A stretch of DNA of 64,000 bases from Polytrichum commune (lineage: Eukaryota; Streptophyta; Polytrichopsida; Polytrichales; Polytrichaceae), in contig OX485806.1 of assembly GCA_950295325.1 (NCBI GenBank), positions 866,001 to 930,000 of the forward strand. Direction: 5' to 3'. Below the pieces are notes generated by a model that saw nothing but the letters and a program-made list of their open reading frames with translations, did no database searches and was not told the DNA's origin. A program made the position numbers and the translations under genes. Below, piece by piece: positions 1,556 to 29,130 of this stretch. Within the stretch, counting starts at the first letter, position 1. Every line of letters starts with the position of its first letter.

Positions 1556-1672
1556 GTTTGGGTCGATCGACCCAAACTAAAAAAATCACAAGATTGCAAC
1601 AGTTGTTTGGGTCGATCGACCCAAACTAAATAAACAAGGCTGCACCAGGAGTTTGGGTCGGTCGACCCAAAC
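1556..1672. repeat. Three palindromes inside the intron
   Basis: Cores lie at 1556-1577 (centre AT), 1605-1626 (centre AT) and 1651-1672 (centre GT), all with perfect GTTTGGGTCG/CGACCCAAAC arms. They fall between the donor at 1681 and the acceptor near 1405 of the minus-strand gene. The sequence between them is AT-rich and unrelated. Confidence 0.9.
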
Positions 1673-1681
1673 AATACTCAC

Positions 1682-3005: not shown

Positions 3006-3031
3006 CTGCAAGGAAAGAAACCCCAATGTTA

Positions 3032-7252: not shown

Positions 7253-7871
7253 CATTGAATGGAATTGTGTTTGGCTCTACATATTGGTTAAAATATACCG
7301 TCATGATACTTGAAAAAATTAATGTGGCCGCCACCCTTCCTCCCAATGGTGTATGTCATATCCACACAAAACCCAAAAAATAGATTAAATATCATAGACT
7401 AAGTCATATGACGGCTGGGGTATCAGGGGGGCATTGATAGATGCGCATTTTCTACAATAAACAAAAAACCGGGAATTATGTAAGGAGGTTCGAAATAACC
7501 TCTGCAATAGAAGAAGGCGGGAAAGGCATCCAATGCCTAAGTCTGGGAAGCGGAGGTGGATAGTATAAAGGGGTGCACCCCCCAAAAGTCGGTCTTTTTT
7601 TTCTCCTCTCCCGCTACTGAATTCGTAGAGAGAACTCTTAGTCGGAGCTGTACTGAAAGGTTTGTGCATGCTGCCGTTCATGAGCACTTTTTCCAGAGCA
7701 TGGAATTTGGGTTTAGGGTTTAGGGTGCAAGCCCACCAAGAACTTTGCAATGAGCTCAAATTCAACACACCACGCAATATCCTCCGTATTATACGCCGGA
7801 TTTTGTGGTGTATTTGGGCGCTCTTCATCTTTCCACGAGTGTTGGCGGGTTTTGAGTCTGACCCTTATGAG

Positions 7872-8607
7872 GTTTGGGTCGGTCGACCCAAACCCCTCCA
7901 CTACTGTTTAGGGTTTTTGTCTGACCCTGATGAGGTTTGGGTCGACCGACCCAAACCTGTCCACTACTGTTTAGGGTGCCTGTACGACCCTTATCAGGTT
8001 TGAGTCGGTCGACCCAAAACCCCACCCTAGTGTGTTAGGGTGCCTGTACGACCCTTAGCAGGTTTGGGTCGACCGATCCAAACCCCTACCCCAGTGTGTT
8101 AGGGTGCCTCTCTGACCCTTAAGGGGTTTGGGTCGACCGACCCAAACCCCTACCCCAGTGTAGCGGGGTGCCTCTCTGACCCTTAAGGGGTTTGGGTCGA
8201 CCGACCCAAACCCCTTCCCAAGTGTGTCAGGGTGCGTCTCTGACCCTTAAGGGGTTTGGGTCGACCGACCCAAACCCCTATCCATGTGTTTCAGGGTGCC
8301 TCTCTGACCCTTAAGGGGTTTGGGTCGACCGACCCAAACCCCTAGCCCAGTGGGGGTATATTTACCCTGTGAAGGTTTGGGTCGGTCGACCCAAACCCCT
8401 ACCTCAGCTTGGGCAGATGTAGGTTGAGCATGGGAAGGTTTGGGTCGGTCGACCCAAACTTTTCCCCACAGCGTGATCGAATTCTTGATGGCCCTGAACC
8501 CATCATTGTGCAAGGTTTGAGTCGGTCGACCGAATCCCGACCCCATCCCATGGGCAAGCTGTGGATGAATCCATGGTGCCACAGGGTTTAGGTCGGCTGA
8601 CCCAAAC
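7872..8607. repeat. Array of 12 palindromes with about 57-77 bp spacing
   Basis: Cores start at 7872, 7935, 7998, 8060, 8126, 8190, 8254, 8318, 8375, 8438, 8515 and 8586. Arms are GTTTGGGTCG/CGACCCAAAC, with the two-base centre mostly AC or GT; copies at 7998, 8060, 8515 and 8586 have arm mutations. Between cores is a looser repeat (GGGTGCCTCTCTGACCCTTA). The array ends about 180 bp before the start codon of the putative transposase. It is the same palindrome as in the introns at 1-3.4 kb. Confidence 0.9.
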
Positions 8608-10391: not shown

Positions 10392-11682
10392 AATGATTGC
10401 ACATGGACGTGGCGATGTCAAGTATGCTCATTATGCTCTTGATTTGTATCCGGCGGATTCAAACCACACGATAGGGTCATTTACAAAGCTTTTACGTGAT
10501 TTGGAGAAACCGCCGTCCCATTCATCAAGATTGTTATTTGAAAACTCGGGATCAAGACCTCTATATGAAGCGGTCTTGGATGGAAGAGATGTATGCGTGC
10601 ACTCGTTGCCGGAGCCACCAAGTGAAGATGTGATTGCGAAGAATTTGCCCCCAACTTTGCGTGTCCAATTGGACAATTGTGCGAAGGACAATAAAAGTAG
10701 ATATGTTTTTGCATATTGGTCGTTGTTGGTGGCGAAGGGCATTTTCAAGGAGGTTTTTGTGTCCTTTCTATTGGTAGGCCACACGTACGATGATATTGAT
10801 GCATCTTTTGGGCGGTGGAGCATGAAGTTGCGCGAGGAGGATTTTCCAACAATCCCATTGTTGATGAAGTCGTACATGGATTTGGAGAACATTCCCGTCA
10901 TCCCCCATATGATCGAGGAGGTTCCAGACTTCAAGGCATTTATAGAACCGTATATTCGAAGCGGAACTCACCGATTGATCGGGCATACGAAGGCACAACA
11001 ATTTCGGTTCTACGTGCGTGACGATGGTGTTCCCGCCATGTAATACAAGTTGTTGTGCACGTCACAAGACTGGAGCCCGCCGGAGGGTCTCCTTGTATGG
11101 CGTGTTGATGGGGAGGGAAGGACGATGTTGTCTGACGGAGAGCCTAAGCCTTGCAAACCAATAGCCATGAAGAATTTGGAGGATATTTTGAAAGGTATAT
11201 CAGGATTCATACAATATTGGGAGAGTTTGAAGATAGCGGATGTTGGCGGATCATGTTGGCATCGTTATGGGAGTTGGATGCATTATTGGACACGTGTTCG
11301 TGCCGCCTTGGCAGACCTCCACCAAGATAGCCCTCATACTTTGAGGCATGGATTTTGGCCACAAACACGAGTCGATGTACAAGCTTCGGAGGCTAGTCTT
11401 TTGGGAAATGGAGAGGTTCGAGAGGAGTTTGATGTGGACGACCATTACGTGGGGCCTGCTAGTAGTCGTCCCCAACCATCTTTCCGCATTGCAGTGGATT
11501 GTCATGAAGGCTATATGCTTATTTTGCGTCCTGGAGACGAGACATATGCAAAGCCAGTGTGGGTGGCAAGAGCTTTGTCCAAACCCAATTTTGTAACTTC
11601 CAGCCCTCGTTTTCGACAAATACAAGTGGAGTACTACCGACCGACAACAAGGAATGAAGATGTGATTCGGCATTATACAGGC
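10392..11682 (+). pseudogene. Putative transposase (DUF7869-like), exon 2, interrupted
   Basis: The exon carries the most recognisable DUF7869 region: RVQLDNCAKDNKSRY (second candidate catalytic Asp), a hydrophobic helix (FAYWSLLVAKGIFKEVF) and VGHTYDDIDASFGRW (third acidic candidate). An in-frame TAA at 11041-11043 (after DDGVPAM) breaks the frame, and the same frame then runs on for another 213 codons. The stop is one C-to-T change from a Gln codon. At 11682 the reading frame enters the inserted gypsy retrotransposon; the frame resumes at 21647. The gene is therefore dead at least twice over: a stop codon and a 10-kb insertion. Confidence 0.6.
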
Positions 11683-12114
11683 TGTCACGTGAGGTGATAT
11701 CGGGGGCTAAGTCACGTCAATTTAGGAGTAAATGGACTCCACTAGGAGTCCATGTGTGTTAGGATGAGTAACGGACTCCATTGGGAGTCCTAGTTAGTTG
11801 TTCATCCCCTCCATGGATGAACTCCACATAGGATTGGGGTTGTATGGAGAGGAAGGCCTCTTGACTTGCCATTGTTGTCAAGTCAAGTCTTGTGAGTGTG
11901 TTTTGAGAGAGAGAGAGCTTGTTGTTGCTTTCTCATGGCTATGGTGTAGTAGATTATGAGTAAAGCCTTTGCATTCTTTCTCCACCACTTGCACTCTTGG
12001 ATTCTCCCTTCGTGGAGTGAGAGATAGCTTGACTCTTGTGTGTGAATTTTAGAGTTTCTTAAGCTTTGTAAGGAGACATTTTAGTTTCTTAAGCTTGGAG
12101 AGAGAAACCCTCAT
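11683..12114 (+). repeat. Left terminal block of the gypsy element (5' LTR or its remnant)
   Basis: 432 bp beginning TGTCACGTGAGG are identical, base for base, to 21104-21535. The right-hand copy is followed by a further 107 bp (ending CGACA) that is absent here; instead the leader starts at ACTTGACAACAA. I found no clear tRNA primer-binding site (TGG start) directly downstream. Confidence 0.85.
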
Positions 12115-13441
12115 ACTTGACAACAATTGTATTCAAATTTTTCATTTTTGGTTGTATTTCTAAGCTAGAAGGGCCCAGTAGTGGGAGCAAATGAGTGATA
12201 CAAGTGTATGAAAGCTTAGTTTGCAATTCCTTGCAACCCTCAAGAAGATTTTGAGAAAAATCTTCACATTTCTCTTTTGGTGTCTCTTTGTGTTTTCTTG
12301 AATTGTTGATGGTTGAATCTTGAGACCAAATGGAATCTCAAGTCACATCTTTCTTGCTTGCAAATTGTGGAAGCAAAGTTTAATTTTTTTAATCAAATCC
12401 GATTTAGTTTTAATTTTTTAAGTTCAAATCCGATTTGTTTTTAAATTTTGTTGAGCTCCGGACGGATCCGGAGCTCACCGGACCCTCCTAAAGCTTCTGG
12501 AGCTCCTGGAGCTCCGGTTCTGCAAGCCGGGCGGGCGGCGCAGGCCGGGCCGGGAGCGGGCGGGCGCAGGCCGGGCCCACGGGCGGGCGGCGCCAGCCGG
12601 GCCGGGGCGGGCGGGCGGGCGTCAGCCGGGCCGGGGCGGGCGGCGCCAGCCAAGCCCAGGTTAGCCCCCTTCCCCTTCCCTTTTTATTATTTTATTATTT
12701 TAGGTTTTTAGGTTTTTGTTTTTGTTTTTGTTTTTGTTTTTATTTTTTATTTTAAAAATATAAACTATTTTTTTTTATTTTTTTTTATTTTTTTTACATT
12801 TTTTTACTTATACCTTTCAAACTTGGCATTTGACTCTCACAAACTTTGAGGTTCAAATTTGGGGGCATACTAGCTCCGATTGGAGTGAAATTTGAGCCTA
12901 TCTTGTGTGAAATTTGCCAAGGAATCCAATGGTGTAATTGGATTGTTGATTGGGATTCAAAATCATTGCTGAAATTGTTAATTTCAACGCTGATTTTTGT
13001 TTTTGGGAGCAAATTAACTCCGAACGGAGTGAAATTTGAGCCTATTTTGTGTGAAATTTGCCAAGGAATCCAATGGTGTAATTGGATTTTTGATTGGAAG
13101 TCAAAATCATTGCTGAAATTGCTAATTTCAACGCTGATTTTTGTTTTTGGGAGCAAATTAACTCCGATTGGAGTGAAATTTGAGCCTAATTTGTGTGAAA
13201 TCTTCCTAGGAGTCCATTGGTGCACTTAGTTTGTTGATTGGAGTTCATAATCACCTTGGAAATGAACATTTTCAACGCTGATTTTTAATTTTAATTACCA
13301 ATCTCAAACCTTTGCACAATTTTGGAATTCTAGGGGCATAAGCATTTGGCATTTGGCAAGGTATTGCCATTTAGATAGTCCGCAACAGGTGCAGGTTTCC
13401 ATTACCTTGTAGATAGTTGCAGGTACTCAAGGGATTATTTT
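12115..13441 (+). other. Gypsy leader: GC-rich tract, T-rich tract and 144-bp tandem repeats
   Basis: This is non-coding leader before gag. A tract at about 12460-12660 is almost pure G/C (GGGCGGGC-type runs), sharply unlike its surroundings. It is followed by a T-rich run with (GTTTTT)n at about 12715-12800. From about 12850 to 13290 there are three tandem copies of a 144-bp unit (anchor GGAGTGAAATTTGAGCC at 12882, 13026 and 13170). Because 144 is a multiple of three, frames stay open on both strands through the repeats, but I see no protein family in them. Confidence 0.8.
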
Positions 13442-14368
13442 ATGGTGCAAACTAGGAGTCGATATTATCGATCTCCATCACCAGATTACTTGGAGGACGT
13501 GGGCACCACAAATCTTGAGCCAGAGGTAGATACCAACGAGGCTTTTGAGCCTATTTCGGCGTTGGACACTACTAGTAGGCTTCGGATTTGGAGTGTCGGC
13601 ACGTTCGACGACATGGAGGACGATCGCCACAATTCAGTGCGTGATCGGTTTTCAGGTCGAGCTGGGGGCATTTCCTTGCCCGATTGGAAACTCCGGTTTC
13701 GTACCTGGATTAAGGAGAAACGCCAAAGGTCTTCCAATTTCAATGATTGGTATGCCTTTGAACTTCTGCCTCAACATTTGGAGTATGAGGCACTCCAAAC
13801 TTACGAACGATGGACAGAGGGTCATCAACGACAACTTCGGGAGGTGGAGCAGTATTGGGAGGCCCGGGTTGAACTTATTTCAGCCCTTAAAGATGGGGCG
13901 ATTGCCACCTTAGCTCCACCCACCTTAAAGGAGGAGGATCCACCGGAGGAGTCTGAGGACCAAGAACTGGCATTTGGGCCACTGGTGGCTGGCAGTAGCA
14001 CGGCTACCCTTTCACGGATGGCACGTGCTACACAGGCAGCATTGACGGCTGTTGGTCCACCACCTCCATTTAATCCCCTTACTGAATTTGTCGCACATTT
14101 GGAAGTGGAGTATGGTGGGTTTCGGCGAGACCAGATGCAGCGCATCCAGGATTTCCGCCGAGAGAAGGATGATACTCCACGGACCATGTATACGCGACTC
14201 GCGCGATTTGCTGTGGAGTCGGGAGGTGTTTTTGCTGAGAGTCAGCTTGTTAAAATATTTTTGTCTAAGATTGACAAGCGGCTACTTGAGTTGGCATCAC
14301 CTCGGATTATCCTCGACTACGAGGGCCGAGCTACGCTTGCACAAGCGTTTGCCGTGGTTGAGAAATAA
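13442..14368 (+). CDS. gag: Gypsy gag (capsid) region
   Basis: 308 codons from ATG to a TAA that is in frame with everything downstream. A disordered N-terminus with a MVQTRSRYYRSPSPD start is followed by a Trp/Arg-rich helical region typical of Ty3/gypsy Gag (LPDWKLRFRTWIKEKRQR), a Glu-rich linker and a second helical block (FVAHLEVEYGGFRRDQMQRI, TPRTMYTRLARFAVESGG). The terminal TAA at 14366-14368 is probably a nonsense mutation of a longer Gag-Pol frame, since the zinc knuckles lie 34 codons further on in the same frame. Gag forms the particle that houses reverse transcription. Confidence 0.75.
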   Translation: MVQTRSRYYRSPSPDYLEDVGTTNLEPEVDTNEAFEPISALDTTSRLRIWSVGTFDDMEDDRHNSVRDRFSGRAGGISLPDWKLRFRTWIKEKRQRSSNFNDWYAFELLPQHLEYEALQTYERWTEGHQRQLREVEQYWEARVELISALKDGAIATLAPPTLKEEDPPEESEDQELAFGPLVAGSSTATLSRMARATQAALTAVGPPPPFNPLTEFVAHLEVEYGGFRRDQMQRIQDFRREKDDTPRTMYTRLARFAVESGGVFAESQLVKIFLSKIDKRLLELASPRIILDYEGRATLAQAFAVVEK

Positions 14369-14401
14369 GATCGGGCTCTTTGCCAACATGATGCCACGGA
14401 T

Positions 14402-15862
14402 ATGGTATCTTGGATGACAGAGAGTCCGAAACCAAGAAGAATTGTCACAGCTACTAGTAGTTTAGCTGAGACTCAACCCGTCAAGGAGCAAAAGATTTTG
14501 CATTGTTGGGGTTGTGGAGAAGCTGGTCATTCGAAGAATGATCCCAATTGTCCTAAGAAGAAGAAAACTCAGCCTTTGGGAAAATTAAAACAAAAGATGG
14601 AACCAGTAAGGGCAGGGGACAATTCTAAGAAGAGACAATTGAAATGTAGCCATTGTGGTGGCACTAATCACGATGTGGATCATTGTTTCCTACTTCATCC
14701 TGAGATGCGGCCTGCCAGTTATGTCACTGGAAAGTCTCCAAGGGAGCAGAGTCTTGAGGCTAAGGTGGCAGAGCTTGAGCAAAAGCTCAAATCTTCTGCA
14801 TCTTTTGCTCAAATTTCTGAGCCGCATGTGGGTGGTGGCACTTCGGGTTCGGACATGTATATGTTTGGAGCAGCTGGAGAGGTGGTGGCGGCGGCTTCTA
14901 CTCGCTCACAAATATTGGCAGATGCGGTGGCTTCCACGAGTGGTGGTAGCAACGAGGTGCTACATCCTCGCCATGCCGGACCAACTGATCAAATTGGTCA
15001 AACACGTTTACCTCTTTCATTTGGATTGGTAGACACCACTGTTGTTGGGGCTAAAAACCCTGTGCCTTTGAAAGATGGGGATTCCATCTCGAAGGATGTT
15101 ACGCAGGCATTGGCATATAAAATTCTCTATATGCCAATTTTCTCGGGTTCGGAGTTTATGGTTTCGGATTTCAAGCCTGCTGCAGTTTTTCATTTAGCTG
15201 GGAGAATGTTAGAAGGTAAGGCGGATTTGCCATCCCTTCAAGTATCCCAAGCTGTGGTTGACGTACATGTGGCTGAGGAGGTGAAGGACTTAGCCAATTT
15301 GCGAGCGGGTCTTGCGGATGCGGCGATCATTGCTTTTGGTAAGCAAATTGATATTCCTCCAGCATCAATTTCAGCAGTGGATACGTCATTTTCGAATTAT
15401 GCGTCGGGAGCGGCATATCTTGCAGACATTTCTGCAAGGCCTGCTCGCGAACGGCATAATTTGCAACCTGGAGTTGTACGGCTGATGAACGACAAATCGT
15501 TGTTTGTCGTTTTACACACGGATATGCCCACTATCCGTGCTACACCACTGAGAGTTATGATGGATTCCGGTGCTCAACCGGTTATGATTGGCAAAGGACT
15601 TGCTGACAGTCTTGGATTGACGCCAGCAAACTTGGATCCTTGTCCATTTACTATTGTGACTTCAGTAGGGGGCACTGAACGTGCAATAGGTTACACCAAG
15701 GCACCTCTACGTTTGATTTTTCATGTGGGGGCAGGGCCTACTTACACTCATTTGTCAATGAAGTATGTTGTTACTAATGCTACCAACTATGATATACTTG
15801 TTGGTCAGCAAGCTCTTTACCCACTTGGCTTTGGTTTGGATAATTGGACGGAAAAGGCATGA
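14402..15862 (+). CDS. Gypsy nucleocapsid zinc knuckles and aspartic protease
   Basis: This runs in the same frame as gag. Two zinc knuckles are visible: CWGCGEAGHSKNDPNC (Cys35, Cys38, His43, Cys50; CX2CX4HX6C) and CSHCGGTNHDVDHC (Cys82, Cys85, His90, Cys95; CX2CX4HX4C). A coiled-coil-like segment (EAKVAELEQKLKS) follows. The retropepsin-like active site is MMDSGAQPVMIG with catalytic Asp388. Further on, TNYDILVGQQAL fits the second conserved block of retroviral-type proteases. The frame ends at TGA 15860-15862, one C-to-T change from an Arg codon, and open frame continues beyond. Confidence 0.8.
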   Translation: MVSWMTESPKPRRIVTATSSLAETQPVKEQKILHCWGCGEAGHSKNDPNCPKKKKTQPLGKLKQKMEPVRAGDNSKKRQLKCSHCGGTNHDVDHCFLLHPEMRPASYVTGKSPREQSLEAKVAELEQKLKSSASFAQISEPHVGGGTSGSDMYMFGAAGEVVAAASTRSQILADAVASTSGGSNEVLHPRHAGPTDQIGQTRLPLSFGLVDTTVVGAKNPVPLKDGDSISKDVTQALAYKILYMPIFSGSEFMVSDFKPAAVFHLAGRMLEGKADLPSLQVSQAVVDVHVAEEVKDLANLRAGLADAAIIAFGKQIDIPPASISAVDTSFSNYASGAAYLADISARPARERHNLQPGVVRLMNDKSLFVVLHTDMPTIRATPLRVMMDSGAQPVMIGKGLADSLGLTPANLDPCPFTIVTSVGGTERAIGYTKAPLRLIFHVGAGPTYTHLSMKYVVTNATNYDILVGQQALYPLGFGLDNWTEKA

Positions 15863-15931
15863 ATTAGACCGGGATGGTCCACTGGAGATGGCAGGAAGGT
15901 ATTTATTCCTGTCACATTTGCAGCCACTACT

Positions 15932-17539
15932 ATGACTATGGTTGCGGAGGCAATGTTTGGTTGCAGCGGTTTAGTTGCAGATTTGCCTTGTGCTCCAGTT
16001 TTATTGGAGGAAACAATGGACTACACTTGTAATGCGGCAGAACAACAATTTTTACCATCTTTTCAAATTCCTGCTCGACATTTCAAGGATCCACCTCCAC
16101 CATGGCGAACTCCTAAGGAGTTATCCGACCATTGTCGACACATTGTAGCGGATTTGGAGCTTGGAGAGGCATCCCCAACTTCATCCTCATTTCCTTTTGC
16201 TCAACTCATTCGTTGGCAACCATCACATGAAGGTATTGTCCTTGTGGAGATCTTTGGAGGCATTGGCACAGGTTTGGCGGCAGTGTTGGAAGCTGGAATT
16301 ACAGTTTGGCGATATATTCATGTGGACAATGGGTATGCAGCCAACAGAGCCGTCCGACACCACATCCAACAATTGTTGTTGACATACCCCGCACAATTGT
16401 CAGCCTCTGCCATTCATGGATGTTGTGGTCAACTTCCTCAAGATGTCACTATGATTAGTGATGAGGATTTGAGAAGGTTGGGCCACGTGGATTTGATTAT
16501 TGCAGGATGGCCTTGTCAAGGCCATTCGCGGGCAGGAACTGGCTAGGGATTGGATGATCCTAGGTCTAGTTTGTTTGCGGATTTGATGCGATTGACACAA
16601 TTGTGGTTTACCCACCAATCAACTCCGCCATGGTACATTTTCGAAAATGTACCATTATTGGGTGATACCCGACACAAAGTGGTGAAGGATGGTGAGTACA
16701 TTAACCAAATTTTGGGTACTCCAACATTTCTGGATGCTGCATCTTTGGGATCCTTTGCTCATCGGCCTCGTTGGTTTTGGACCAACTTGGTATCACCTCG
16801 GGTGCTGTCAGCGGCGATTGCCCGTATTCCCCGCCTTATGGATCGCAAGGTGGATGACATTTTAAATGATCATCGTGTTTCCTTGGCAGTTACCAAGGAT
16901 GACACCTTGCCATTTGCATTAATTAACAAGGTGGGAATTCCGAGAGGTGCACTACCTACTTTTATGACATATCCACAGTCTTTTGCATTTCGATCTCGTG
17001 GACCTGGCATGGTTTGGGATTCAAAATCCCAAACTTATGAGGAGCCTACGGCAGATGAGCGGGAACGCGCCATGGGTTTTCTTACAGGTACCACGGCTGC
17101 TCACAGGCTTCAGGAAGGTCAGAGACGTTTCCTATTGGGGCAAACTATGGATCTTAATGGCATTGTGTGGATAATTGGAATTTGTCTTGCTGCTCAACAA
17201 CGTATGGATGACCGATTGCTTACTCTGAGAGCAGAGAACAATGGTCAGGGGGCAATGGAGCCGCAATCCAAGGATCACATTGAGGTCAATGACACCGAGG
17301 GATTATTTCCTTTGAAACTTCATGTTGCGGAAGAGCTTCGAGTCCAACGTGGTTTTTCGGCTTTGGCCCAAGAGTTTGGGAAGTTGGAGGCCCATAAAAT
17401 GTTTCCACTTCTACTTCTTGGTGATACTTCATATGTGGATAGCTATTTAGCTACACAAACTGATTGTAGTGGAGAGGATACGCATTTGGATTCAAGTGCA
17501 GATAATGGGGGCAAAGGTGTTGCCCTCTCCACGGACTAG
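15932..17539 (+). CDS. Retrotransposon-encoded C5 cytosine DNA methyltransferase (stop within)
   Basis: This is a complete C5-MTase catalytic domain in the Gag-Pol frame. Motif I is LVEIFGGIGTGLAAVLEAGI with an acidic SAM contact in YIHVDN. Motif IV is DLIIAGWPCQGHSRAG, with the catalytic Cys codon at 16514. Motif VI is YIFENVPLLGDTR (Glu codon at 16643). Motif VIII is AHRPRWFWTNL. A motif IX-like region is ADERERAMGF, and motif X is RRFLLGQTMDLNGIVW. The AHRxRxFWxNL signature and the motif I context favour the DNMT3/DRM branch over DNMT1 or CMT. A TAG at 16544-16546, twelve codons after the catalytic Pro-Cys, interrupts the domain, and another TAG at 17537 ends the frame. Both are one C-to-T change from Gln. 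The domain could let the element write methylation on its own or host DNA; that role is inferred. Confidence 0.88.
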
Positions 17540-17551
17540 CAATCACAGGCT

Positions 17552-18253
17552 GTGCTGGCACCAATTGGCAATCCTTCTATGAAGAAGGAAACTACGGAGT
17601 TTGACGATTGGCCAATTGAAGTGGGGCCAAAGCTTACTGGTGCCGAAGCACGAAAGGTACGGGCATTTATTCGCTCTTACCGTAATTGTTTTGCCTTTAG
17701 TCTTCATGATCTTGAAGGATATAAAGGTAAACCTGTTCGTATTCAATTTGAGGACGACCACCCTATTTTCAGACGGCCATACAGACTTAGTACCTCTGAA
17801 AGGTTGGGTGTTCAAACTCGATGTCAAGAGTTATTGGCAGCGGAATTGATTGAACTCTCCAATGGAGAGTATGCTTGTGCCACGGTTATGCCGTCAAAGA
17901 AGGATATCTTTGGCAACTGGACGGAAAAACGGATGTGTGGTGATTATCGTCCAGTCAACCGCAAGACCAAGTCGGATCGATATCCAATGCCGATGCCGGA
18001 GGAGTTGTTTGATGCACTAGGATTTTCTAGAATCTTCAGTACTTTGGATTTGAGGTCTGGTTATCACCAATTACCGTTGTTGTTGGGTGATCGGGTGAAG
18101 ACCGCATTTTGGGGAATTGATAAAGATGGCAAGGATCAACTTTATCATTGGAAATTTCTGCCATTTGGTCTCAAGAATGCACCAGCTGAATTTCAGCGGG
18201 TGATGGACCAATTATTGGCTGGTTTGCCGTTTGCTAGATGTTATCATCTTTAG
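17552..18253 (+). pseudogene. Gypsy reverse transcriptase, N-terminal part (fingers/palm), truncated
   Basis: Same frame as the methyltransferase, separated from it only by TAG 17537. It shows canonical Ty3/gypsy RT blocks: HPIFRRPYRLS, RMCGDYRPVNRKTKSDRYP, FSTLDLRSGYHQLPL (first catalytic Asp), KTAFWGI and HWKFLPFGLKNAPAEFQRVM. The frame should then reach the YxDD catalytic box, but the sequence turns into ARCYHL and a stop at 18251-18253. The other frame picks up with LDVIIFS. Only one of the two box aspartates survives, so a small deletion has removed part of the active site. Confidence 0.88.
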
Positions 18254-20669
18254 TAATAATCCACAGGATCATGTGAGACATTTGCAAGCGGTATTTGAAC
18301 GACTTCAACGGTGGGGACTCCGTTTACATCATGGAAAATGTAAGTTTTTCCATGATCAATTGCCCTATTTAGGCCACATGATTGTTCATGGCGGTCTTGG
18401 TGTGCAACAGGCGAAGGTGGATGCTTTGCACAAAATTCCCGCACCTAGTGATGTACCACGGCTTCGTGCATTTCTAGGATTGGCAAATTATTATAGGAGG
18501 TTTGTCAAAAACTTTAGTTTGATTGCCAAACCCCTTACCATTCTCACGGGTAAAGACCAACCATGGATTTGGAGTCGGGAACAACAACAGGCATTTGATA
18601 CATTAAAGCAGAGGCTCGGTTCAGCGCCAGTGCTTCGACGCCCGGATGTGTCTAGAGCTTTTCAATTGCACACGGATTGGAGTGCAGTGGGATTGGGAGC
18701 GGTATTGACACAGAAAGATGAAGAGGAAAAGGAATATGTGATGGCTTATGCATCTAGAAGCAATAATAGTGCTGAATCTAATTATTCTTCTTATGAAGGC
18801 GAGGCCTTGGCGGCCGTTTGGGCCATTGCACATTTTCGACCTTATTTGTATGGGCAAAAGTTTACTTTAGTGACTGATCATCAGCCTTTAAAATGGCTTA
18901 TGGAATCAGATAAGCTCACCGGGAAACTTGCTAGGTGGGCATTGTTACTTCAGGAATATGATTTTGAAGTTGTTCACCGAGTAGGAATTGCCAACTTGGA
19001 TGCAGACGGATTGTCTCGCAATCCAAGTCCTTCAGATGAGGATTTAACTGGAGCCAGGTGGCATGGAGATTGTGATCGTGAGGCAGTGCCGGGTTGGCAT
19101 GCTGCCACATATCTCACAATGATGTCGGGATTGGCTGCTGAGATCCTTGTAGAAAAACAGGATGAGGAGGTTGATAAATCTCTCGTTGTTAGTGATGTGT
19201 GGGAAGACCAGGCGGTCTTGTACAAACTTCAACAAGGGATATTTCCTCTTGGACTATCTGCTATGGAGCGAGATAGAGTTAGTCACCGGATAACAAGGTT
19301 TCGTTGGGCAAACAACTTGTTATTTCGTGTGTGGCCGAACGGAACGAGACGCATCGTTCCAAGGCCAGATCAAAGAGCTTCTTTGGTACGGCAAGTGCAC
19401 GAGGAGCTTGGACATTTTGGAGTGCGAAGGACGCACTCTATGTTGCGCAACCAATATTGGTGGACTGGTATGTATCAACAGGTTGCCACTTATGTTTCTC
19501 GGTGTGAAGTATGTGACCGGGTCAGGTCAAGTTTTAATACTTTGTCACCTCAACTTCAGCCTTTACCTATTATGGGCTTGGGATATCGTTGGTCTTTGGA
19601 TTTTGCCGGACCGCTTACTATCACTCCACGTGGTTCCAAGTATGTGCTTGTGATGGTGGAGCATTTTAGTAAGTGGATTGAACTCGTGGCTCTTCCCCAA
19701 AATTCCTCAGAATTGGCGGCTATGGCATTTCTTGATCGAGTTTTGGCACGGTTTGGAGCACCTGCAGAGGTGTTGACGGATCAAGGGAGAGAATTCCTTG
19801 GATCTTTCGAGGCTTTGTGTACCAAGGCTTTGATTGATCATCGGACAACTTCTAGAGATCACCCTGAGGCAGATGGCTTAGCTGAACGAGTTGTTCAGAC
19901 AGTTAAGCGCGGTTTGCGGAAGTATGGATTGCTTCATGGCAACCATCGCGATTGGGACTTGATGTTACCATGGATAGCAATGGGTTATCGTTTCAGCATT
20001 CAAGCATCTTTGGCATCCTATAGTCCTTACCAACTCTTGTATGGACGGGAACCAATTTTACCTAGCTCGGTGCGAGAGAAATTGGCTCCCGTGGTAAACT
20101 TGGATGATCCAGATGTTTGGGCTCAATGTCTTCATGACCGAGTAGCGTTCTTCCAAAAGGCCATGCCTATGGCTATGGAGAACTTAAATATTGCTCAACA
20201 TCGTGATACATTACGGTATGCTCGGATCCGCAGTGGAGCTTATCGACCTCAGGTTCGTAGATTTTCCAAGGGGGATTATGTTTACTTGCAACGGGAGGCG
20301 CCTACGACATTGGATGTCAAGGCTGGGCGCACGATTTTGCGGGTAAAAGATGTCTTGCCAAGTGGTATATTATTGCTTGAAGGCAAGGATGGACGGGAAT
20401 GTCGTGAGCATTCAAAGAATTGTGCTCCATGTCACCTTCCCATCGACGGCTCTGTGCATCCCGAGTTGGCGGTTGTACCACAGGGTCTGCCTTGTTATGT
20501 TTGTGGAGAGAAGACAAGAGCTGCAACAATGTTATTGTGCGACCAATGTCAACGTGGATGGCACATGGCATGTTTGACACCTCCCCTTTTGACTCTTCCT
20601 TCTTGCAATTGGGTTTGTCCTCGTTGTCGGAAAGCCTCTCATTCCGTGGCCGTTAATGGTCATGATTGA
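18231..20669 (+). CDS. pol: Gypsy RT C-terminus, RNase H, integrase and PHD finger
   Basis: 812 codons with no ATG at the start, continuing pol after the frameshift. RT thumb (GLRLHHGKCKFF, FLGLANYYRRFVKNFS) is followed by RNase H with its acidic residues (LHTDWSAVGLGAVL, YEGEALAAVW, VTDHQPLKWLM). The integrase has an HHCC zinc domain (HEELGHFGVRRTH, CEVC) and the D,D-35-E core: Asp457 (SLDFAGPL), Asp517 (LTDQGREF) and Glu552 (GLAERVV). After a basic GPY-like region (FSKGDYVYL), the C-terminus is not a chromodomain but a PHD finger, about residues 755-799: CYVCGEKT, LLCDQCQRGWHMAC and WVCPRC give C4HC3. PHD fingers read histone H3 tails, so this may steer integration, as chromodomains do in chromoviruses (inference). 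Confidence 0.92.
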   Translation: MLDVIIFSNNPQDHVRHLQAVFERLQRWGLRLHHGKCKFFHDQLPYLGHMIVHGGLGVQQAKVDALHKIPAPSDVPRLRAFLGLANYYRRFVKNFSLIAKPLTILTGKDQPWIWSREQQQAFDTLKQRLGSAPVLRRPDVSRAFQLHTDWSAVGLGAVLTQKDEEEKEYVMAYASRSNNSAESNYSSYEGEALAAVWAIAHFRPYLYGQKFTLVTDHQPLKWLMESDKLTGKLARWALLLQEYDFEVVHRVGIANLDADGLSRNPSPSDEDLTGARWHGDCDREAVPGWHAATYLTMMSGLAAEILVEKQDEEVDKSLVVSDVWEDQAVLYKLQQGIFPLGLSAMERDRVSHRITRFRWANNLLFRVWPNGTRRIVPRPDQRASLVRQVHEELGHFGVRRTHSMLRNQYWWTGMYQQVATYVSRCEVCDRVRSSFNTLSPQLQPLPIMGLGYRWSLDFAGPLTITPRGSKYVLVMVEHFSKWIELVALPQNSSELAAMAFLDRVLARFGAPAEVLTDQGREFLGSFEALCTKALIDHRTTSRDHPEADGLAERVVQTVKRGLRKYGLLHGNHRDWDLMLPWIAMGYRFSIQASLASYSPYQLLYGREPILPSSVREKLAPVVNLDDPDVWAQCLHDRVAFFQKAMPMAMENLNIAQHRDTLRYARIRSGAYRPQVRRFSKGDYVYLQREAPTTLDVKAGRTILRVKDVLPSGILLLEGKDGRECREHSKNCAPCHLPIDGSVHPELAVVPQGLPCYVCGEKTRAATMLLCDQCQRGWHMACLTPPLLTLPSCNWVCPRCRKASHSVAVNGHD

Positions 20670-20994
20670 GGATTTTGTGGATGTTTACCACATGTTTTAG
20701 TGGTGAAGTTGTTATTTAGTTGGTTGGAAATTTTATGGGATTGAAAATCACATTGAAAGAGTTATCCAAGAATTCAACATAAATTGTTGAAGGCGATTAA
20801 GGATGGGGCTCAAATTGCACCCAGCCTATAGTTCTTGGATTACTTTGTCAATCATGAGTTTAATTCCCTAGATTACCACTACCCAATTGAATATGTATAG
20901 ATGTAGCAACAACTTGATCATGTTCAACAACTCTACCGATGAGTGTGTTTGTTCCTAGCCGATTGGAGGGGCTCCTTATCTGCTAGTGGGGGCA
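20670..20994 (+). other. Gypsy 3' untranslated region with polypurine-tract-like end
   Basis: Non-coding DNA after the pol stop. It ends with AGTGGGGGCA at 20985-20994, the best polypurine-tract candidate near the 3' end. Directly after it comes the 107-bp block (20995-21101), not the TGTC start of the terminal repeat, which is unusual. Confidence 0.5.
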
Positions 20995-21101
20995 CTTGAA
21001 GAGGTGGTTGTTTAGCATTTTAGTTTGCTATTTTATTTTGCTAATTGATGTTGACGCCGACACTCGATCTGTTGTGTTTAACGATCTTAGTTTACACGAC
21101 A
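20995..21101 (+). repeat. Extra copy of the 107-bp terminal block (A1)
   Basis: The 107 bp from CTTGAAGAGG to CACGACA are identical to 21536-21642. Here they sit between the polypurine-like tract and the right terminal repeat, joined to it by GC, so that the junction reads GACA-GC-TGTC. Confidence 0.9.
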
Positions 21102-21103
21102 GC

Positions 21104-21642
21104 TGTCACGTGAGGTGATATCGGGGGCTAAGTCACGTCAATTTAGGAGTAAATGGACTCCACTAGGAGTCCATGTGTGTTAGGATGAGTAACGGACTCC
21201 ATTGGGAGTCCTAGTTAGTTGTTCATCCCCTCCATGGATGAACTCCACATAGGATTGGGGTTGTATGGAGAGGAAGGCCTCTTGACTTGCCATTGTTGTC
21301 AAGTCAAGTCTTGTGAGTGTGTTTTGAGAGAGAGAGAGCTTGTTGTTGCTTTCTCATGGCTATGGTGTAGTAGATTATGAGTAAAGCCTTTGCATTCTTT
21401 CTCCACCACTTGCACTCTTGGATTCTCCCTTCGTGGAGTGAGAGATAGCTTGACTCTTGTGTGTGAATTTTAGAGTTTCTTAAGCTTTGTAAGGAGACAT
21501 TTTAGTTTCTTAAGCTTGGAGAGAGAAACCCTCATCTTGAAGAGGTGGTTGTTTAGCATTTTAGTTTGCTATTTTATTTTGCTAATTGATGTTGACGCCG
21601 ACACTCGATCTGTTGTGTTTAACGATCTTAGTTTACACGACA
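21104..21642 (+). repeat. Right terminal repeat (3' LTR), 539 bp
   Basis: It starts TGTCACG and ends ACGACA, giving the TGTC/GACA short inverted ends usual for LTRs. It consists of a 432-bp block identical to the left terminus plus the 107-bp block. It is followed by target copy AGGC and then by the resumed transposase reading frame, which proves that this is the outer end. Confidence 0.88.
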
Positions 21643-21646
21643 AGGC

Positions 21647-21841
21647 TGGGATACAAACCCTAACTTTCGGTGGAAGGTGGATTCTGAGCACGGTCCATCT
21701 TGGGTAGATACAAATTCCATATTCATAGCATGGAAACCACGGAAAAACCATAGTAGATCAGTGTCCATCCCTCAAAAGTACATAACTTTTGCAAAAGACA
21801 ACCTTGCTCGGATCGCAGAAGAAGCAACCCACGTTGAATGA
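21647..21841 (+). pseudogene. Putative transposase (DUF7869-like), separated C-terminus
   Basis: 64 codons and a TGA continue the frame of the exon that stops at 11682: WDTNPNFRWKVDSEHGPSWV, then KPRKNHSRSV, ending ARIAEEATHVE. The junction codons (ACA GGC before the insertion, GGC TGG after) restore exactly if the retrotransposon and one AGGC copy are removed. This is direct evidence that a once-continuous gene was split by the retrotransposon. Confidence 0.8.
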
Positions 21842-23438: not shown

Positions 23439-25330
23439 TTAGTGGTATCTGTTGGTATATGAATGATTACATGTGTGTTTGGGAAGGGGCCTATATATGG
23501 GGTGAGATTTTGATACCATTTTATATTTGGGATGGTGAGTATTGTGATGGAATCTGGGTCATGTTTAGGTGCTAACCTAGCCCAATGAATGGTTGTTTGG
23601 GCTTCGTTTTCATTGTGGGGGGTGAGCATAACCTATTTCATGCCATTTGTGTGAGAATGTAGTACCAAGAGATCCGACAATTTTATCTCTGGGAAATGGC
23701 GAGAAGAAATTTGTTAGTCGAGTGGAGCATGTAACTGGTGAGGAGAAGTAGGAATGGGTAATATTAAAGGATGTTGTGATGTAATCTAATAATACTTTGG
23801 GTAGGGTATGGTGTGAGTTTTTGAGTGGGTCATTTTTTGGGATTCTATATTTATATCTTTGATATAACCAAGTTATTTTTATTTTGAATGTTTGGGTTGG
23901 GGGTATTAGGTCATGTGGTTGGTGTAGCATTTGGTTGTATTGGGTCCAAAGCCATGCAAGTCTATTATAAGGAATGGTTATAAGATGTTTATTTGTTTCG
24001 TCATATATGTGGGCGATATCATCTTGTACTTGAATTTTGTTTGTGTTTGTATTGATATCTTTTTTGGGGTTGCATTCGTGTGTTGAAATTTTTATGAGGG
24101 GGATGTTTAGGGGCAAGGATATGTGCCTTGGGTCTTTGTTTTGGGTAGAATAATCATTTTCTCGTATGATATTTTCATATCTAGTGTATGTTGTTTCTTG
24201 GTAAAGTATGTGAGTATTATATTTGTATTGTGTTGTATGACTCTTGGGATGTTATAGGAGAACAATTCTCTTTGTGGGAGTTTTTTGTTATAAGTTATAC
24301 CAGTGGGTAGTATCCATTGGCATAGGTATGTGTACTGTTTTTTTTTTATATATAATTTTATGTTTGTCTTTGATTGGTATCGTATAATGGTCTATTATTG
24401 AGTGTACATGGTATTTTATTGGATTGTATATTATGTGTGTTGGTGTGGGCGGGTGTATTAGATGTGTTTCGGGTTGGTGGTTGTGTGTGGGTATCACTAT
24501 GTAGAGGTTCTATATTATGTCTTGTTATAATGTATTCTTGTTTTAGTGTGCATGGTGGGTAGTGATTTTGGCATGGCTCTTGACAATTCTCATTGCATCA
24601 TGGGTGGAAAAAGAATTGTTTTGCTATTTTCAATGTTTGTTTTTATCATGTGTGTTGGTTTTTTGTAGAAGTTTAAATATTTAGTATAGGACATCAAGTG
24701 TGTGCCATTCCTTAAAGTGAGTTGTTTAATGTCATATATGTTTTCTAAGAGTAGTTTGTGTATGTGTTTTAGGTTTTGAATAGAGATTTTTTGGGGTGGT
24801 GGTGTTGTGGATAGTTTATGCCATTTTTTTCAAGTGGTGTTGCTTCCAAAGGGAATTTTTCTATTTGACTTCTGAGATGGGCTTCACTTGCTATTTTTAT
24901 AAGGTATATTGTTCTAGTGATGGGCGATCGGTTACAGTCGTGGTCTTTGATTTTAGGTATGTTTTTTGCACCTCCATGTTTAGCAAGTATATAGTGTGTA
25001 AGACCCTTGTAGATTGTTCCAAATTTGCCTTTATCATTTAGTGCAATCCTGAGTTGTTCCCTAATACATCTAAGGTAGGCATTTTTTAGTGAAAATGCTT
25101 CTATCCCAAACAACTCATGAGGTAGTCAAGTAACCATGTTTGGTGTGCAGTTGGGGAGTCCACATATTTTCTTCTGAATTGCTATTATTTTTTCATCTAG
25201 TTTTATGATTCCAGGTTGTAAATATGGCACTACATAGATATTGTATGCTATTCTTGCTCTAATTATTGTGTCTACCATACTAATTTTTTGTTTGATTATT
25301 GTTGGACAGTTGCTAAATGACTACATTGGC
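23411..25330 (-). pseudogene. Decayed non-LTR retroelement: post-RT region plus C-terminal domain
   Basis: On the minus strand, conceptual translation from about 25300 downward gives RARIAYNIYVVPYLQPGIIKL, CGLPNCTPNMVT, a stop, then LPHELFGIEAFSLKNAYLRC and GKFGTIYKGLTHYILAKHGG. This pattern (LDxxIxxxQKxICGLP, FGIEAFSL) fits the region following the RT core of LINE-type elements. Further on (24116-23610) comes KVLLDYITTSFNITHSYF, FPRDKIVGSLGTTF and IGYAHPPQ. After a frameshift (23629-23411) there is TIHWARLAPKHDPDSITILT and KWYQNLTPYIG. The PP motif followed by a WA-helix and an ILTxP strand resembles phage-type Dam adenine methyltransferases, but the NPP(Y/F) motif is AHPP here, so that reading is speculative. 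Several stops and shifts make it a pseudogene. Confidence 0.45.
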
Positions 25331-27343: not shown

Positions 27344-28801
27344 TCAGTGTTGTACAGCAAGGATCTCCTGATAGTATATTCTCATGCCAAACACGCAAGG
27401 AAATGCTCCAGCCACCGCAGTAGCTAGCATGTACCCCCAATCCTGGGGTATTGAGGGTAAGTCTGCGAAACCGGCACAAATAAACGCCACAACTATGCAA
27501 GCGACTGCGACAATTAAGAAATATGAGGCTCTAGTAACAGCAACGAACATAACATGATTTGTTTCCACCTGGTCCCCAAATCTTTTGGGAAAACCCACAG
27601 CAGCTCCCAAGAGGAAACTCCCGACTGCGAAAAAGAAGGACATACTGTTGAAAATCCAAAATGCTTTCATAGGATTACTACGAAAATACACAAAGGAGCG
27701 ATAAGTGTTCGGTGGAGCGGCGGGGCTCAGCTCCAAGAATTGACTGCTGTAGGTAGGTTGAAACCCAAGGGGAGGCTGCAACCACGATGCGAACGCAATG
27801 CTGGCAATCAATGCAGCGCCCACGAGAATGGCATTGGCTGCGTCTACGCTAGACTGCCGCTCATTTCGCAAGCCTTCCACATCAAATCGCTGCAACATCT
27901 GCATAATTTGAGCAGCATCTTCTCGAGGGCTTTTCTGTGGTGGAAGGCAAGACGGTCTGAACCCGTTTTCGTTTGTCTTGCATGCTTGTCTGGCATACTC
28001 CACAGGTGTGAGGCCCTTCCAATTCGCCTCACTCACTTTCAGATCCTCACTTTCCCGGAGCAACACCCTCACAGTTTCCGAGGAGCCTGACTGGACAGCG
28101 AAGTGGAGAGGAGTGTGCCTCGAAAGCGCGGGTTGGTTCACTGGCAACCCGGCAGCCAGGAGCTTTCTGACTATTTTGTGCCTTCCGTGCAACGCAGCCA
28201 AATGCAGAGGTGAGGCTTGTCTATTGTTATGGGGCGCATTATTAAATCCGTGTAACTTGCAACAGCTCAAGAGCTCCTCCATCACCTCCTCACTCTCGCC
28301 AATCGCAGCGTGATGAAGTGCTGTGCAGCCCGACCTATCTCCAGTGTTGACGTCAATCCTGTGCCTTGAATACAACAACGCTTGGACAATTCCCAATCTT
28401 CCGTTTTCGGCTGCGATGTGCAACGGCGTCTTGCTGTCGTTATGCTGCGCAGTGGCATTAGGGTTAATTTCCCCTCCAGCCAAGAACTCCCTCACCACAG
28501 CCTCGTGCCCTTTCTCAACAGCATAGTGAAGGGGCGTGCTCCCCATGGTGTCTGCAGCGTTGACGTCAAACCCAACACGTCGATTTCCATCTGTTGCTTT
28601 ATACGCCAGCAACGCCCGAACAATGTCTAAGTTTCCAATTTCGGCGGCGACGTGCAACGGCCTCTTCTCATAATCCCCCACGGCATTCACATCTATGCCT
28701 CCTGTAGTCAACAGCCTCTGCACCTCCACGACGTCAATAGCAATAATGGCTTGGTGCAAAGGAGTGTGCACTGTACCATTCGTTGCCGCGTTCATTGCCA
28801 T
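27344..28801 (-). CDS. Ankyrin-repeat membrane protein with PGG-type tail (ACD6-like family)
   Basis: About 485 codons from the ATG at 28801; the longer open frame begins only with GTG and has an upstream in-frame stop, so the first Met is taken. Seven to eight ankyrin repeats are visible by their TPLH/xAA motifs: HTPLHQAI, RPLHVAAEIG, TPLHYAVEKG, TPLHIAAENG, TALHHAAIG, SPLHLAALHG, TPLHFAVQSG and a decayed TPVEYA. A linker then leads to four hydrophobic segments: ILVGAALIASIAFASWLQPP (the PGG-domain start), WIFNSMSFFFAVGSFLLGAA, YFLIVAVACIVVAFICAG and YMLATAVAGAFPCVFGM. Plant ankyrin-TM proteins of this layout (ACD6 and relatives) sit in plasma or ER membranes, often in defence or stress signalling. 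The ALIASIAFA-LQPPLG form of the PGG motif is of the kind I associate with bryophyte and fern proteins. It is intact, intronless as seen, and the best host gene here. Confidence 0.9.
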   Translation of the reverse strand: MAMNAATNGTVHTPLHQAIIAIDVVEVQRLLTTGGIDVNAVGDYEKRPLHVAAEIGNLDIVRALLAYKATDGNRRVGFDVNAADTMGSTPLHYAVEKGHEAVVREFLAGGEINPNATAQHNDSKTPLHIAAENGRLGIVQALLYSRHRIDVNTGDRSGCTALHHAAIGESEEVMEELLSCCKLHGFNNAPHNNRQASPLHLAALHGRHKIVRKLLAAGLPVNQPALSRHTPLHFAVQSGSSETVRVLLRESEDLKVSEANWKGLTPVEYARQACKTNENGFRPSCLPPQKSPREDAAQIMQMLQRFDVEGLRNERQSSVDAANAILVGAALIASIAFASWLQPPLGFQPTYSSQFLELSPAAPPNTYRSFVYFRSNPMKAFWIFNSMSFFFAVGSFLLGAAVGFPKRFGDQVETNHVMFVAVTRASYFLIVAVACIVVAFICAGFADLPSIPQDWGYMLATAVAGAFPCVFGMRIYYQEILAVQH

Positions 28802-29130
28802 TTCCTTCAGATCCGCACTACCATCATCTGACAACCGAAGCAACGGTGCCCGCCACGACGGTGACCTCCTGCCCTCCAAGGTTCTAAGAACAGTCTTCAC
28901 GAGGATCTAGCGTCCGCCGACGACATCACAAGATTCTCACGTCTACCGACCGAAGTTGAATCCGAATTACCCTTGCACAAGCCCCCTCCTGAACACAACC
29001 TGCGACTCATCACAAACGTGCTTTCAGCATCTCCTGAACAGATCAAGTCACAATACCTCCAACACGGCGCGAAAAGATCATTCTGCGCAAACTCCAAGTC
29101 GAGTTCTCCTTGTAGCACAATTAATTCATC
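28802..29130 (-). promoter_or_regulatory. Likely 5' UTR and promoter-proximal region of the ankyrin gene
   Basis: GC-richer than the intergenic DNA beyond it. A short upstream open frame on the minus strand ends MSSADARSS with a TGA at about 28897-28899. No TATA box was identified with confidence. Confidence 0.35.

What the first reader, a model, noticed from the sequence alone, without database searches (positions are those of the whole stretch)
15932..20669. Gypsy retrotransposon that carries both a DNA-methylation writer and a histone-tail reader
Between protease and RT the single Gag-Pol frame holds a complete C5 cytosine methyltransferase (GWPCQ, ENV, AHRPRWFW, motif X), and after the integrase it ends in a C4HC3 PHD finger, not a chromodomain. 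Retrotransposon-borne cytosine methyltransferases are known from dinoflagellates and charophyte algae. The insertion position inside pol combined with a PHD tail suggests an element that both writes DNA methylation and reads chromatin, for example to pick sites and set its own epigenetic state. Domains are seen; the joint role is inferred.
Basis: partly seen in the sequence, partly recalled or inferred. Interest (0 to 1): 0.88.

Follow-up and report, generated by a model that had tools for sequence, protein, structure and literature searches.

The report
Methyltransferase- and PHD-carrying Gypsy retrotransposon
A jumping element of a probable moss carries its own DNA-methylating enzyme and a histone-reading finger, the same pair turns up in related elements of green algae and a liverwort, and here the enzyme is encoded with the coat protein ahead of a stop codon that looks leaky.

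Summary
The domains are real: a DNMT3-like cytosine methyltransferase lies between protease and RT, and a PHD finger closes the integrase. Three corrections follow. (1) There is no single Gag-Pol frame. ORF1 (Gag-PR-MTase) ends at UAG followed by CAR-YYA, the tobamovirus-type leaky-stop context, in 21 of 21 host-genome copies read and in one relative from elsewhere; the MTase sits on the Gag side. One other relative (P0250) has MTase and RT in one frame, so the stop is not universal. (2) This copy is broken (three premature stops, one in the MTase, and loss of the RT YxDD motif); intact sisters exist. (3) The element is 11683-21642, with split repeats A-coding-B-GC-A-B, a 4-bp target duplication and a PBS complementary to its own leader. 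It is a family: 201 MTase places in the genome, at least 140 with a PHD downstream; both domains are constrained between two old subfamilies. PHD-integrase relatives occur in Marchantia, Calypogeia, Klebsormidium and volvocine algae; in algal-type relatives the MTase lies between RNase H and integrase. KnitGypsy-Dnmt3 (2018) is the closest published element. I did not find the PHD partner or the leaky stop in the papers searched. Self-methylation and PHD-guided targeting remain inferences.

The parts
11679..11682 (.). Target site duplication AGGC, left copy
   Evidence: 9 of 9 copies with both ends visible have a 4-bp duplication; joining the flanks across the element gives a longer ORF.
11683..12114 (+). 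Repeat A1 (TGTCACG...), left terminus; taken as the R-U5-like part of a rotated LTR (inference)
   Evidence: A and B repeats of this copy differ at 2 of 544 bases.
12115..12130 (+). Primer binding site candidate, complementary to a segment inside A1 (about 11868-11883): self-priming (inference)
   Evidence: motif-directed: 13 of 16 sequences examined have 0-3 mismatches of 16; L026 has 7 (segment outside the fetched piece), L019 and L025 gave no motif match. The partner changes with it in three lineages (two subfamilies; L060, undirected scan).
12858..13253 (+). 144-bp tandem repeat, 2.8 copies, in the leader
13442..17539 (+). ORF1: Gag, zinc knuckles, protease, MTase; in this copy interrupted by premature stops at 14366, 15860 and 16544
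   Evidence: Sister copy L021 has one open frame of 1386 codons.
15542..15682 (+). Aspartic protease (weak match)
   Evidence: PF13650 E 3.6e-4, below cut-off
16178..17212 (+). DNMT3-like C5 cytosine methyltransferase domain, motifs in un-rearranged order; premature TAG at 16544 in this copy
   Evidence: fold of an 80%-identical relative closest to DNMT3A/3B
17537..17545 (+). Native ORF1 stop UAG followed by CAA UCA: leaky-stop (CAR YYA) context
   Evidence: 21 of 21 copies; also in L060; consensus from PMC2754532 (passage)
17540..20669 (+). ORF2: RT, RNase H, integrase, PHD; frame and YxDD motif lost near 18231-18250 in this copy
   Evidence: 1047 open codons in L021
20493..20627 (+). PHD finger at the integrase C terminus
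   Evidence: (E 1.3e-8)
20986..20994 (+). Polypurine-tract-like run just before B1
   Evidence: Sequence; same place in L021, L026 and L060
20995..21101 (+). Repeat B1 (...TTACACGACA), taken as the U3-like part (inference)
21102..21103 (+). GC spacer in the palindrome CGACA-GC-TGTC between B1 and A2
21104..21535 (+). Repeat A2
21536..21642 (+). Repeat B2, right terminus
21643..21646 (.). Target site duplication AGGC, right copy

Best explanation
The window holds a recently inserted but broken copy of a Ty3/gypsy-type retrotransposon of a bryophyte, from a green-lineage group marked by a PHD finger on the integrase. Shown by sequence: two in-frame ORFs in intact sisters. ORF1 encodes Gag-protease-DNMT3-type MTase and ends at UAG CAR YYA; ORF2 encodes RT-RNase H-integrase-PHD in the same frame. 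Inferred: most ribosomes stop and a minority read through, so the MTase is made in Gag-like amounts and enters the particle, while RT and integrase-PHD are made in small amounts. RNA primes reverse transcription on itself. The MTase then methylates the element's own double-stranded DNA in the particle or on the way to the chromosome, so new copies arrive marked; the PHD ties the integrase to a histone H3 tail and biases the insertion site. The DDE integrase inserts DNA whose ends are the internal B-GC-A site of the repeat, with 4-bp duplications, giving A-coding-B or A-coding-B-GC-A-B. Anatomy about 0.95, readthrough about 0.85, writer-plus-reader role as stated about 0.45.
For: Domains. DNMT3 class: a nine-row profile scores PDB chains of DNMT3B/3A at 98 bits, 4onj (labelled only DNA methyltransferase; a tobacco DRM as I recall) at 49, DRM2 at 43, HhaI at 46; all 50 structures listed for the predicted fold are DNMT3 entries. 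Leaky stop: 21 of 21 copies, with three hexamer variants inside CAR YYA (12 CAATCA, 7 CAATTA, 2 CAGTTA), plus L060. None of the 69 MTase relatives lists an RT domain (PF00078). Family: 201 distinct MTase places; 140 have a listed PHD 2-7 kb downstream; of the 150 best RT places (of 1400 candidates) 125 have a listed MTase, 129 a PHD, 106 both, 2 neither. Conservation between subfamilies: MTase Ka 0.28 with Ks near saturation (ratio 0.107, 24 pairs), PHD 0.117 (32 pairs), RT-RNase H 0.035 (12 pairs). DDE-type insertion: 4-bp duplication in 9 of 9. Self-priming. Published: some retrotransposon DNMTs (SymbioDIRS) methylate CG de novo in yeast (PMC5890265, section read).
Against: This copy cannot make a whole MTase or RT. 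No methylation, RNA or protein data. The stop is not universal among relatives: of the 120 proteins listed, two list RVT_1; P0250 runs from MTase into RT without a stop, and P0243 has RT-RNase H before the MTase. In 9 of 97 relatives where the motif was read, all of algal type, PCQ reads ECQ, so activity there is doubtful. CpG observed/expected is 0.68 in the element and 0.55 in the rest of the window; the 49 transitions between repeats are not enriched at CG (6 of 49, background 20 of 229). The K. nitens Gypsy DNMT did not methylate yeast DNA, which its authors call inconclusive. Histone binding by this PHD was not tested; its sequence fits several PHD classes. Within subfamilies PHD Ka/Ks is 0.66 (broken copies included). 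23 of 150 RT places have a PHD but no listed MTase, 19 the reverse (capped lists). Ks between subfamilies could not be computed for Gag, PR and IN.
Confidence: 0.5

Rival explanations
1. The MTase works in trans on the host genome or rival elements (for example restraining the element or helping it share heterochromatin), and methylation of its own cDNA is incidental.
For: Over 200 MTase places, many with long open frames, could supply enzyme; PMC5890265 discusses accidental effects of such DNMTs on the Symbiodinium methylome (read in part).
Against: Fusion to Gag-PR ahead of the probably leaky stop predicts packaging with the element's own nucleic acid. No host methylome was available.
Confidence: 0.2
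2. The MTase fold is kept mainly as a structural or nucleic-acid-binding part of the particle, or acts on RNA, not as a DNA methylase.
For: The K. nitens relative gave no methylation in yeast, inconclusively; CpG is not depleted; 9 of 97 relatives read have ECQ instead of PCQ.
Against: PCQ, EN and HR are invariant in the 9 rows, and 88 of the 97 relatives read keep PCQ (the pattern used required the CQ), which a mere scaffold would not need. The profile match is to DNMT3 (98 bits), with DNMT2, the tRNA enzyme, at 38.
Confidence: 0.15
3. ORF2 is expressed by re-initiation or from a separate transcript, not by readthrough.
For: ORF2 has a methionine 14 codons after the stop in the window (translation).
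Against: ORF1 and ORF2 share one frame in the intact copies (L011, L021, L026) and in L060, and UAG CAR YYA is kept in 21 of 21 copies and in L060.
Confidence: 0.12
4. MTase and PHD are chance passengers in a decayed copy without function.
For: The window copy has three premature stops and an RT lesion.
Against: Fixed-spacing pairs genome-wide, intact sisters, constraint between subfamilies, and recurrence in other genera and in algae.
Confidence: 0.03

Closest known systems
KnitGypsy-Dnmt3 of Klebsormidium nitens (de Mendoza et al. 2018, PMC5890265; two parts of the text, two sections and passages seen)
   Same: Gypsy domain set; DNMT3-type, un-rearranged MTase in the element's coding region; repeats arranged as in DIRS elements (A-coding-B-A-B); purifying selection.
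   Different: The paper puts the DNMT in the Pol polyprotein ORF; here it ends ORF1, ahead of a probably leaky UAG. 'PHD' and 'readthrough' do not occur in the paper's main text. Here also 4-bp duplications, a self-complementary PBS and an algal form with the MTase next to the integrase. Its sequence could not be compared directly.
SymbioDIRS-Dnmt3 and SymbioLINE-Dnmt (same paper)
   Same: DNMT carried in a retrotransposon; the DIRS type has split repeats.
   Different: The DIRS type uses a tyrosine recombinase and the LINE type an endonuclease; this element has a DDE integrase and 4-bp target duplications.
Chromoviruses (Ty3/gypsy with a C-terminal chromodomain), incl. the Tcn1 clade of mosses (PMC6317226, passages read)
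   Same: Gypsy pol order; a chromatin-reader-type module at the integrase C terminus; self-priming in Tcn1.
   Different: A PHD instead of a chromodomain; an added MTase; rotated repeats. Neither 'PHD' nor 'methyltransferase' occurs in that paper's main text.
Tobamovirus-type (Type I) UAG CAR YYA readthrough (PMC2754532, passages read)
   Same: The six bases after UAG fit the consensus in 22 of 22 sequences read.
   Different: Only the motif is shared; readthrough here is not measured.
Tf1/Sushi self-primed retrotransposons (details recalled; self-priming in this group also stated in PMC6317226)
   Same: PBS complementary to the element's own leader, directly after the A repeat.
   Different: Here the complementary segment lies well inside the repeat (from about base 122 or 185), so the RNA start is predicted there; not tested.

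Membership tests
KnitGypsy-Dnmt3-like elements | Gypsy protein domains with DDE integrase | tested here: met
   RVT_1, RNase H, H2C2, rve
KnitGypsy-Dnmt3-like elements | DNMT3-type, un-rearranged MTase in the coding region | tested here: met
KnitGypsy-Dnmt3-like elements | DIRS-like repeat order A-coding-B-A-B | tested here: met
   for copies; in the window. Two of nine whole copies are A-coding-B only
KnitGypsy-Dnmt3-like elements | DNMT inside the Pol ORF together with RT | tested here: not met
   A UAG stands between MTase and RT in 21 of 21 copies; ORF1 is Gag-PR-MTase in open copies
KnitGypsy-Dnmt3-like elements | Common descent with the K. nitens sequence | not tested
   No K. nitens MTase was named; K. 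nitens integrase-PHD proteins were found (P0084, P0088), not known to belong to KnitGypsy-Dnmt3
Ty3/gypsy LTR retrotransposon | RT-RNase H-integrase order | tested here: met
Ty3/gypsy LTR retrotransposon | Identical LTR at each end of the insertion | tested here: not met
   Left end is A, right end is B; the LTR-like unit B-GC-A is rotated
DIRS/PAT tyrosine-recombinase elements | Tyrosine recombinase and no target duplication (second part recalled) | tested here: not met
   DDE integrase and 4-bp duplication in 9 of 9
Chromovirus | C-terminal chromodomain on the integrase | tested here: not met
   PHD there instead; no chromodomain at E 0.1
DNMT3 methyltransferases | Best match to DNMT3 by profile and fold, motif I before motif IV | tested here: met
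DNMT3 methyltransferases | De novo DNA methylation activity | not testable with these tools
   Needs expression
PHD finger histone readers | C4HC3 zinc-binding pattern | tested here: met
   across 29 relatives seven of the eight ligand columns are invariant and one (C451) nearly so
PHD finger histone readers | Binding to a histone tail | not testable with these tools
   No binding data; nearest PDB chains are CHD4, KMT2D, KMT2C, PHF21A, KAT6A, ATXR5

The most novel reading that the evidence does not exclude
A green-lineage retrotransposon group carries a matched chromatin kit: a DNMT3-type writer packaged with Gag through a tobamovirus-type leaky stop, and a PHD reader on the integrase. It marks its DNA before insertion and inserts it by a DDE integrase acting on the repeat-internal B-GC-A palindrome, possibly on circles (one-repeat circles give A-coding-B, two-repeat circles A-coding-B-A-B).
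Probability: 0.3. Interest if true: 0.88.

Novelty: new variant of a known kind. Interest (0 to 1): 0.72.

Why it matters
Retrotransposons are targets of DNA methylation, so why some keep a DNA methyltransferase is an open question. Here the question becomes testable in land plants: a young, high-copy family with intact and broken copies in one chromosome-scale genome, a specific prediction about where the enzyme goes (the particle, by the leaky stop), and a paired histone-reader module on the integrase. The repeat layout also suggests that some DDE-integrase elements insert DNA opened inside the repeat, which standard LTR finders, built to expect equal LTRs at both ends, could miss (inference).

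Tried and rejected
Another genetic code for the in-frame stops: not needed, since intact sisters use the standard code with only the ORF1 stop. Read as ordinary equal LTRs: rejected, the repeat starts at A on the left but is followed by a second B on the right; nine 4-bp duplications fix the ends. Random opening of two-repeat circles: not supported, since it predicts A-B-A-coding-B as often as A-coding-B-A-B, yet of 40 A|B junctions (best 40 of 300 candidates, subfamily 1 only) 32 have the element body upstream in the listed places, 8 neither side, 0 downstream; why the rotation is one-sided is unexplained. CG self-methylation scar: not seen. PHD specificity from sequence: left open. MTase tree (80 rows): algal-type MTases form a supported clade (17 rows, 100/98; named members only Volvox and Tetrabaena) apart from bryophyte types, but no cellular DNMT3 was available, so one capture or two is undecided; long rows P0049 and P0050 meet and their place is unsure. 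A host DRM-like exon was seen in L030 and not used. IMG/VR scan: 29 loci at 24-55% identity in the best segment, 28 of them over only part of the MTase; set aside unread. Literature: 10 searches used; one search did not run. Among the titles, abstract starts and passages seen I met no report of an integrase PHD together with a DNMT; most hits were not opened, and subscription papers and preprints are mostly not held. Host identity: one search did not settle it.
Full report
What is there. The window contains one element of this kind, 11683-21642, on the plus strand. Its ends are fixed by repeats, by the 4-bp duplication AGGC, and by the empty site: joining the flanks in a script extends the interrupted flanking ORF from 215 to 275 codons. 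Pfam finds a weak protease, DNA_methylase, RVT_1, RNase H, integrase zinc-binding and core domains and a PHD finger, in that order.

What is not as described. The coding region is not one frame. Frame 2 has stops at 14366, 15860, 16544 and 17537; RT continues in another frame from about 18231, and the RVT_1 profile positions 142-154 are missing, where L021 has its YxDD. In 20 copies fetched from the same genome (the first 20 by score of 123 listed), the copies with long open frames show two ORFs in one frame: 1386 and 1047 codons in L021, 1366 and 1048 in L026, 1203 and 1048 in L011. The first three stops and the RT lesion are therefore damage of this copy; the stop at 17537 is native.

The leaky stop. 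At the ORF1 end, 21 of 21 copies (20 and L029) have TAG followed by CAATCA (12), CAATTA (7) or CAGTTA (2). All fit CAR YYA, the six bases reported as essential for readthrough of the tobacco mosaic virus UAG (PMC2754532, passage read). L060, a relative from outside this genome (MTase 63% identical), has TAG CAATCA at the same place; its contig is filed under a cyanobacterial genome, probably as plant contamination. None of the 69 MTase relatives lists an RT domain, as expected if an ORF ends between MTase and RT. Against a universal stop: of the 120 listed, P0250 runs from MTase into RT without a stop, and P0243 has RT-RNase H before the MTase. Readthrough itself is inferred. If it happens, the MTase is a Gag-side product in this family.

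The methyltransferase. P0001 matches DNMT3A best in the PDB (E 4.7e-8). A nine-row profile scores DNMT3B/3A at 98 bits, 4onj (a tobacco DRM as recalled) at 49, DRM2 at 43, HhaI at 46, DNMT2 at 38. Motif I precedes PCQ, ENV and HRxR, so it is not a rearranged DRM. The predicted fold of P0002 (80% identical; mean pLDDT 80) matches DNMT3 entries in all 50 listed structures. In 9 of 97 relatives read, all of algal type, PCQ is ECQ.

The family. The genome (408 Mb, 64 contigs) has 201 distinct MTase places in two capped searches; 140 have a listed PHD 2-7 kb downstream. Of the 150 best RT places (of 1400 candidates), 125 have a listed MTase, 129 a listed PHD, 106 both, 23 PHD only, 19 MTase only, 2 neither. 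Because lists are capped, missing partners are not proof of absence. In the first comparison 61 of 123 MTase places had a PHD downstream on the same strand, 39 of them at 4017-4018 or 4067-4068 bases, against one pair in another arrangement. Between the two subfamilies synonymous sites are near or at saturation; MTase Ka is 0.28 (Ka/Ks 0.107, 24 pairs), PHD 0.117 (32 pairs), RT-RNase H 0.035 (12 pairs), counting only pairs without stops in the domain; Gag, PR and IN ratios could not be computed. Within subfamilies, broken copies included, the ratios are 0.32 (MTase) and 0.66 (PHD). Repeats within 13 copies differ by 0 to 2.8%; the window copy by 2 of 544, so it inserted recently and may have been broken already when copied.

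Wider spread. A search with the integrase tail and PHD gave 221 proteins, 120 listed, with names including Marchantia, Calypogeia, Klebsormidium, Volvox, Gonium, Tetrabaena, Pleodorina, Haematococcus and Chrzof1 (Chromochloris, as recalled). Of the 120, 25 also match the MTase profile; one, P0075 of Marchantia, is of the bryophyte type with the RT part missing from the gene model. In P0129 the order is RNase H, MTase, integrase, PHD, and in P0159 MTase, integrase, PHD; in the moss element it is protease, MTase, stop, RT. The MTase tree separates the two types, without cellular DNMT3 for reference.

Ends and replication. Of nine copies with both ends visible, two are A-coding-B (L018, L021) and seven A-coding-B-GC-A-B, all nine with a 4-bp duplication. 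The B-GC-A site is a palindrome, CGACA-GC-TGTC, also in L060. The sequence right after A1 is complementary to a segment within A: 0-2 mismatches of 16 in subfamily 1, 1-3 in subfamily 2; L026 has 7 because the segment is outside the fetched piece, and L019 and L025 gave no motif match (16 sequences examined). In L060 an undirected scan finds 13 of 13 at the same place. The two sides change together in these three lineages. Taken together, the LTR-like unit is B-GC-A with a PPT before and a self-priming PBS after it, and the integrated form is that unit rotated (inference). Of 40 A|B junctions, 32 have the body upstream and none downstream; the one-sidedness is not explained.

How it most likely works. 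Shown: anatomy, conserved leaky-stop context, domain conservation, DDE-type insertion marks. Inferred: packaging of the MTase with Gag, methylation of the element's DNA before or at insertion, and PHD-guided site choice. Against: no CpG depletion and no CG excess among repeat differences, and the K. nitens DNMT gave no methylation in yeast, called inconclusive by its authors.

Known or new. KnitGypsy-Dnmt3 is the nearest published element and shares the DIRS-like repeats with Gypsy domains (PMC5890265). Its main text has no 'PHD' and no 'readthrough'. A plant LTR-retrotransposon survey has neither 'PHD' nor 'methyltransferase' in its main text (PMC6317226). A 2025 study mentions DNMT3 embedded in retrotransposons of the Copia and DIRS families, citing the 2018 work (PMC12344493, passages). 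In ten searches of a partial library I met no report of the pair, though most hits were seen only as listings. I rate it a new variant of a known kind.

Host. Named relatives of the MTase include Calypogeia, Marchantia and Sphagnum; seven contigs of 42-78 Mb suggest seven chromosomes. A moss is likely; a Polytrichum relative is a recalled guess from chromosome number, not tested.

Noticed in passing
L060 (CADCWO010000201.1, 9285 bp): A DNMT-Gypsy element sits in a public genome labelled as a Synechococcales cyanobacterium; the contig ends overlap by 127 bases. P0005, labelled Candidatus Obscuribacterales, looks like the same kind of misbinning.
   Followed up: partly
P0111, P0046, P0157, P0144, P0182, P0126, P0159, P0112, P0114: Algal-type element MTases with ECQ in place of the catalytic PCQ; whether they are active is unclear.
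   Followed up: no
P0250 and P0243: Relatives with other layouts: MTase running straight into RT, and RT-RNase H before MTase.
   Followed up: partly
window 11050-11697 and 21647-21840: The element interrupts an ORF downstream of a DUF7869 ORF (10393-11043, E 3e-39); the empty site gives 275 open codons.
   Followed up: partly
window 1-105, 1548-1672, 3249-3419, 7857-8352: Tandem repeats sharing the palindromic core TTTGGGTCGATCGACCCAAA or close variants, with different periods (36, 46, 32, 64).
   Followed up: no
window 27344-28900 (-): Ankyrin-PGG protein ORF of 518 codons, probably a host gene.
   Followed up: no
window 49335-51440 (+): ORF of 701 codons with a weak zf-RVT match (below cut-off), LINE-like.
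   Followed up: no
window 23610-24116 (-): ORF matching PCIF1_WW, E 8e-9, outside the element; PCIF1 as an RNA m6Am writer is recalled.
   Followed up: no
window 116-1525 (-) and 1626-3110 (-): Two long ORFs without Pfam match.
   Followed up: no
L030, 965-1555 (-): Exon with the SPCNNL motif of a DRM-type methyltransferase, probably the host's own gene (class recalled).
   Followed up: no
P0050: Protein with an RT-like region followed by a DNMT, resembling the SymbioDIRS-Dnmt3 order (by eye).
   Followed up: no
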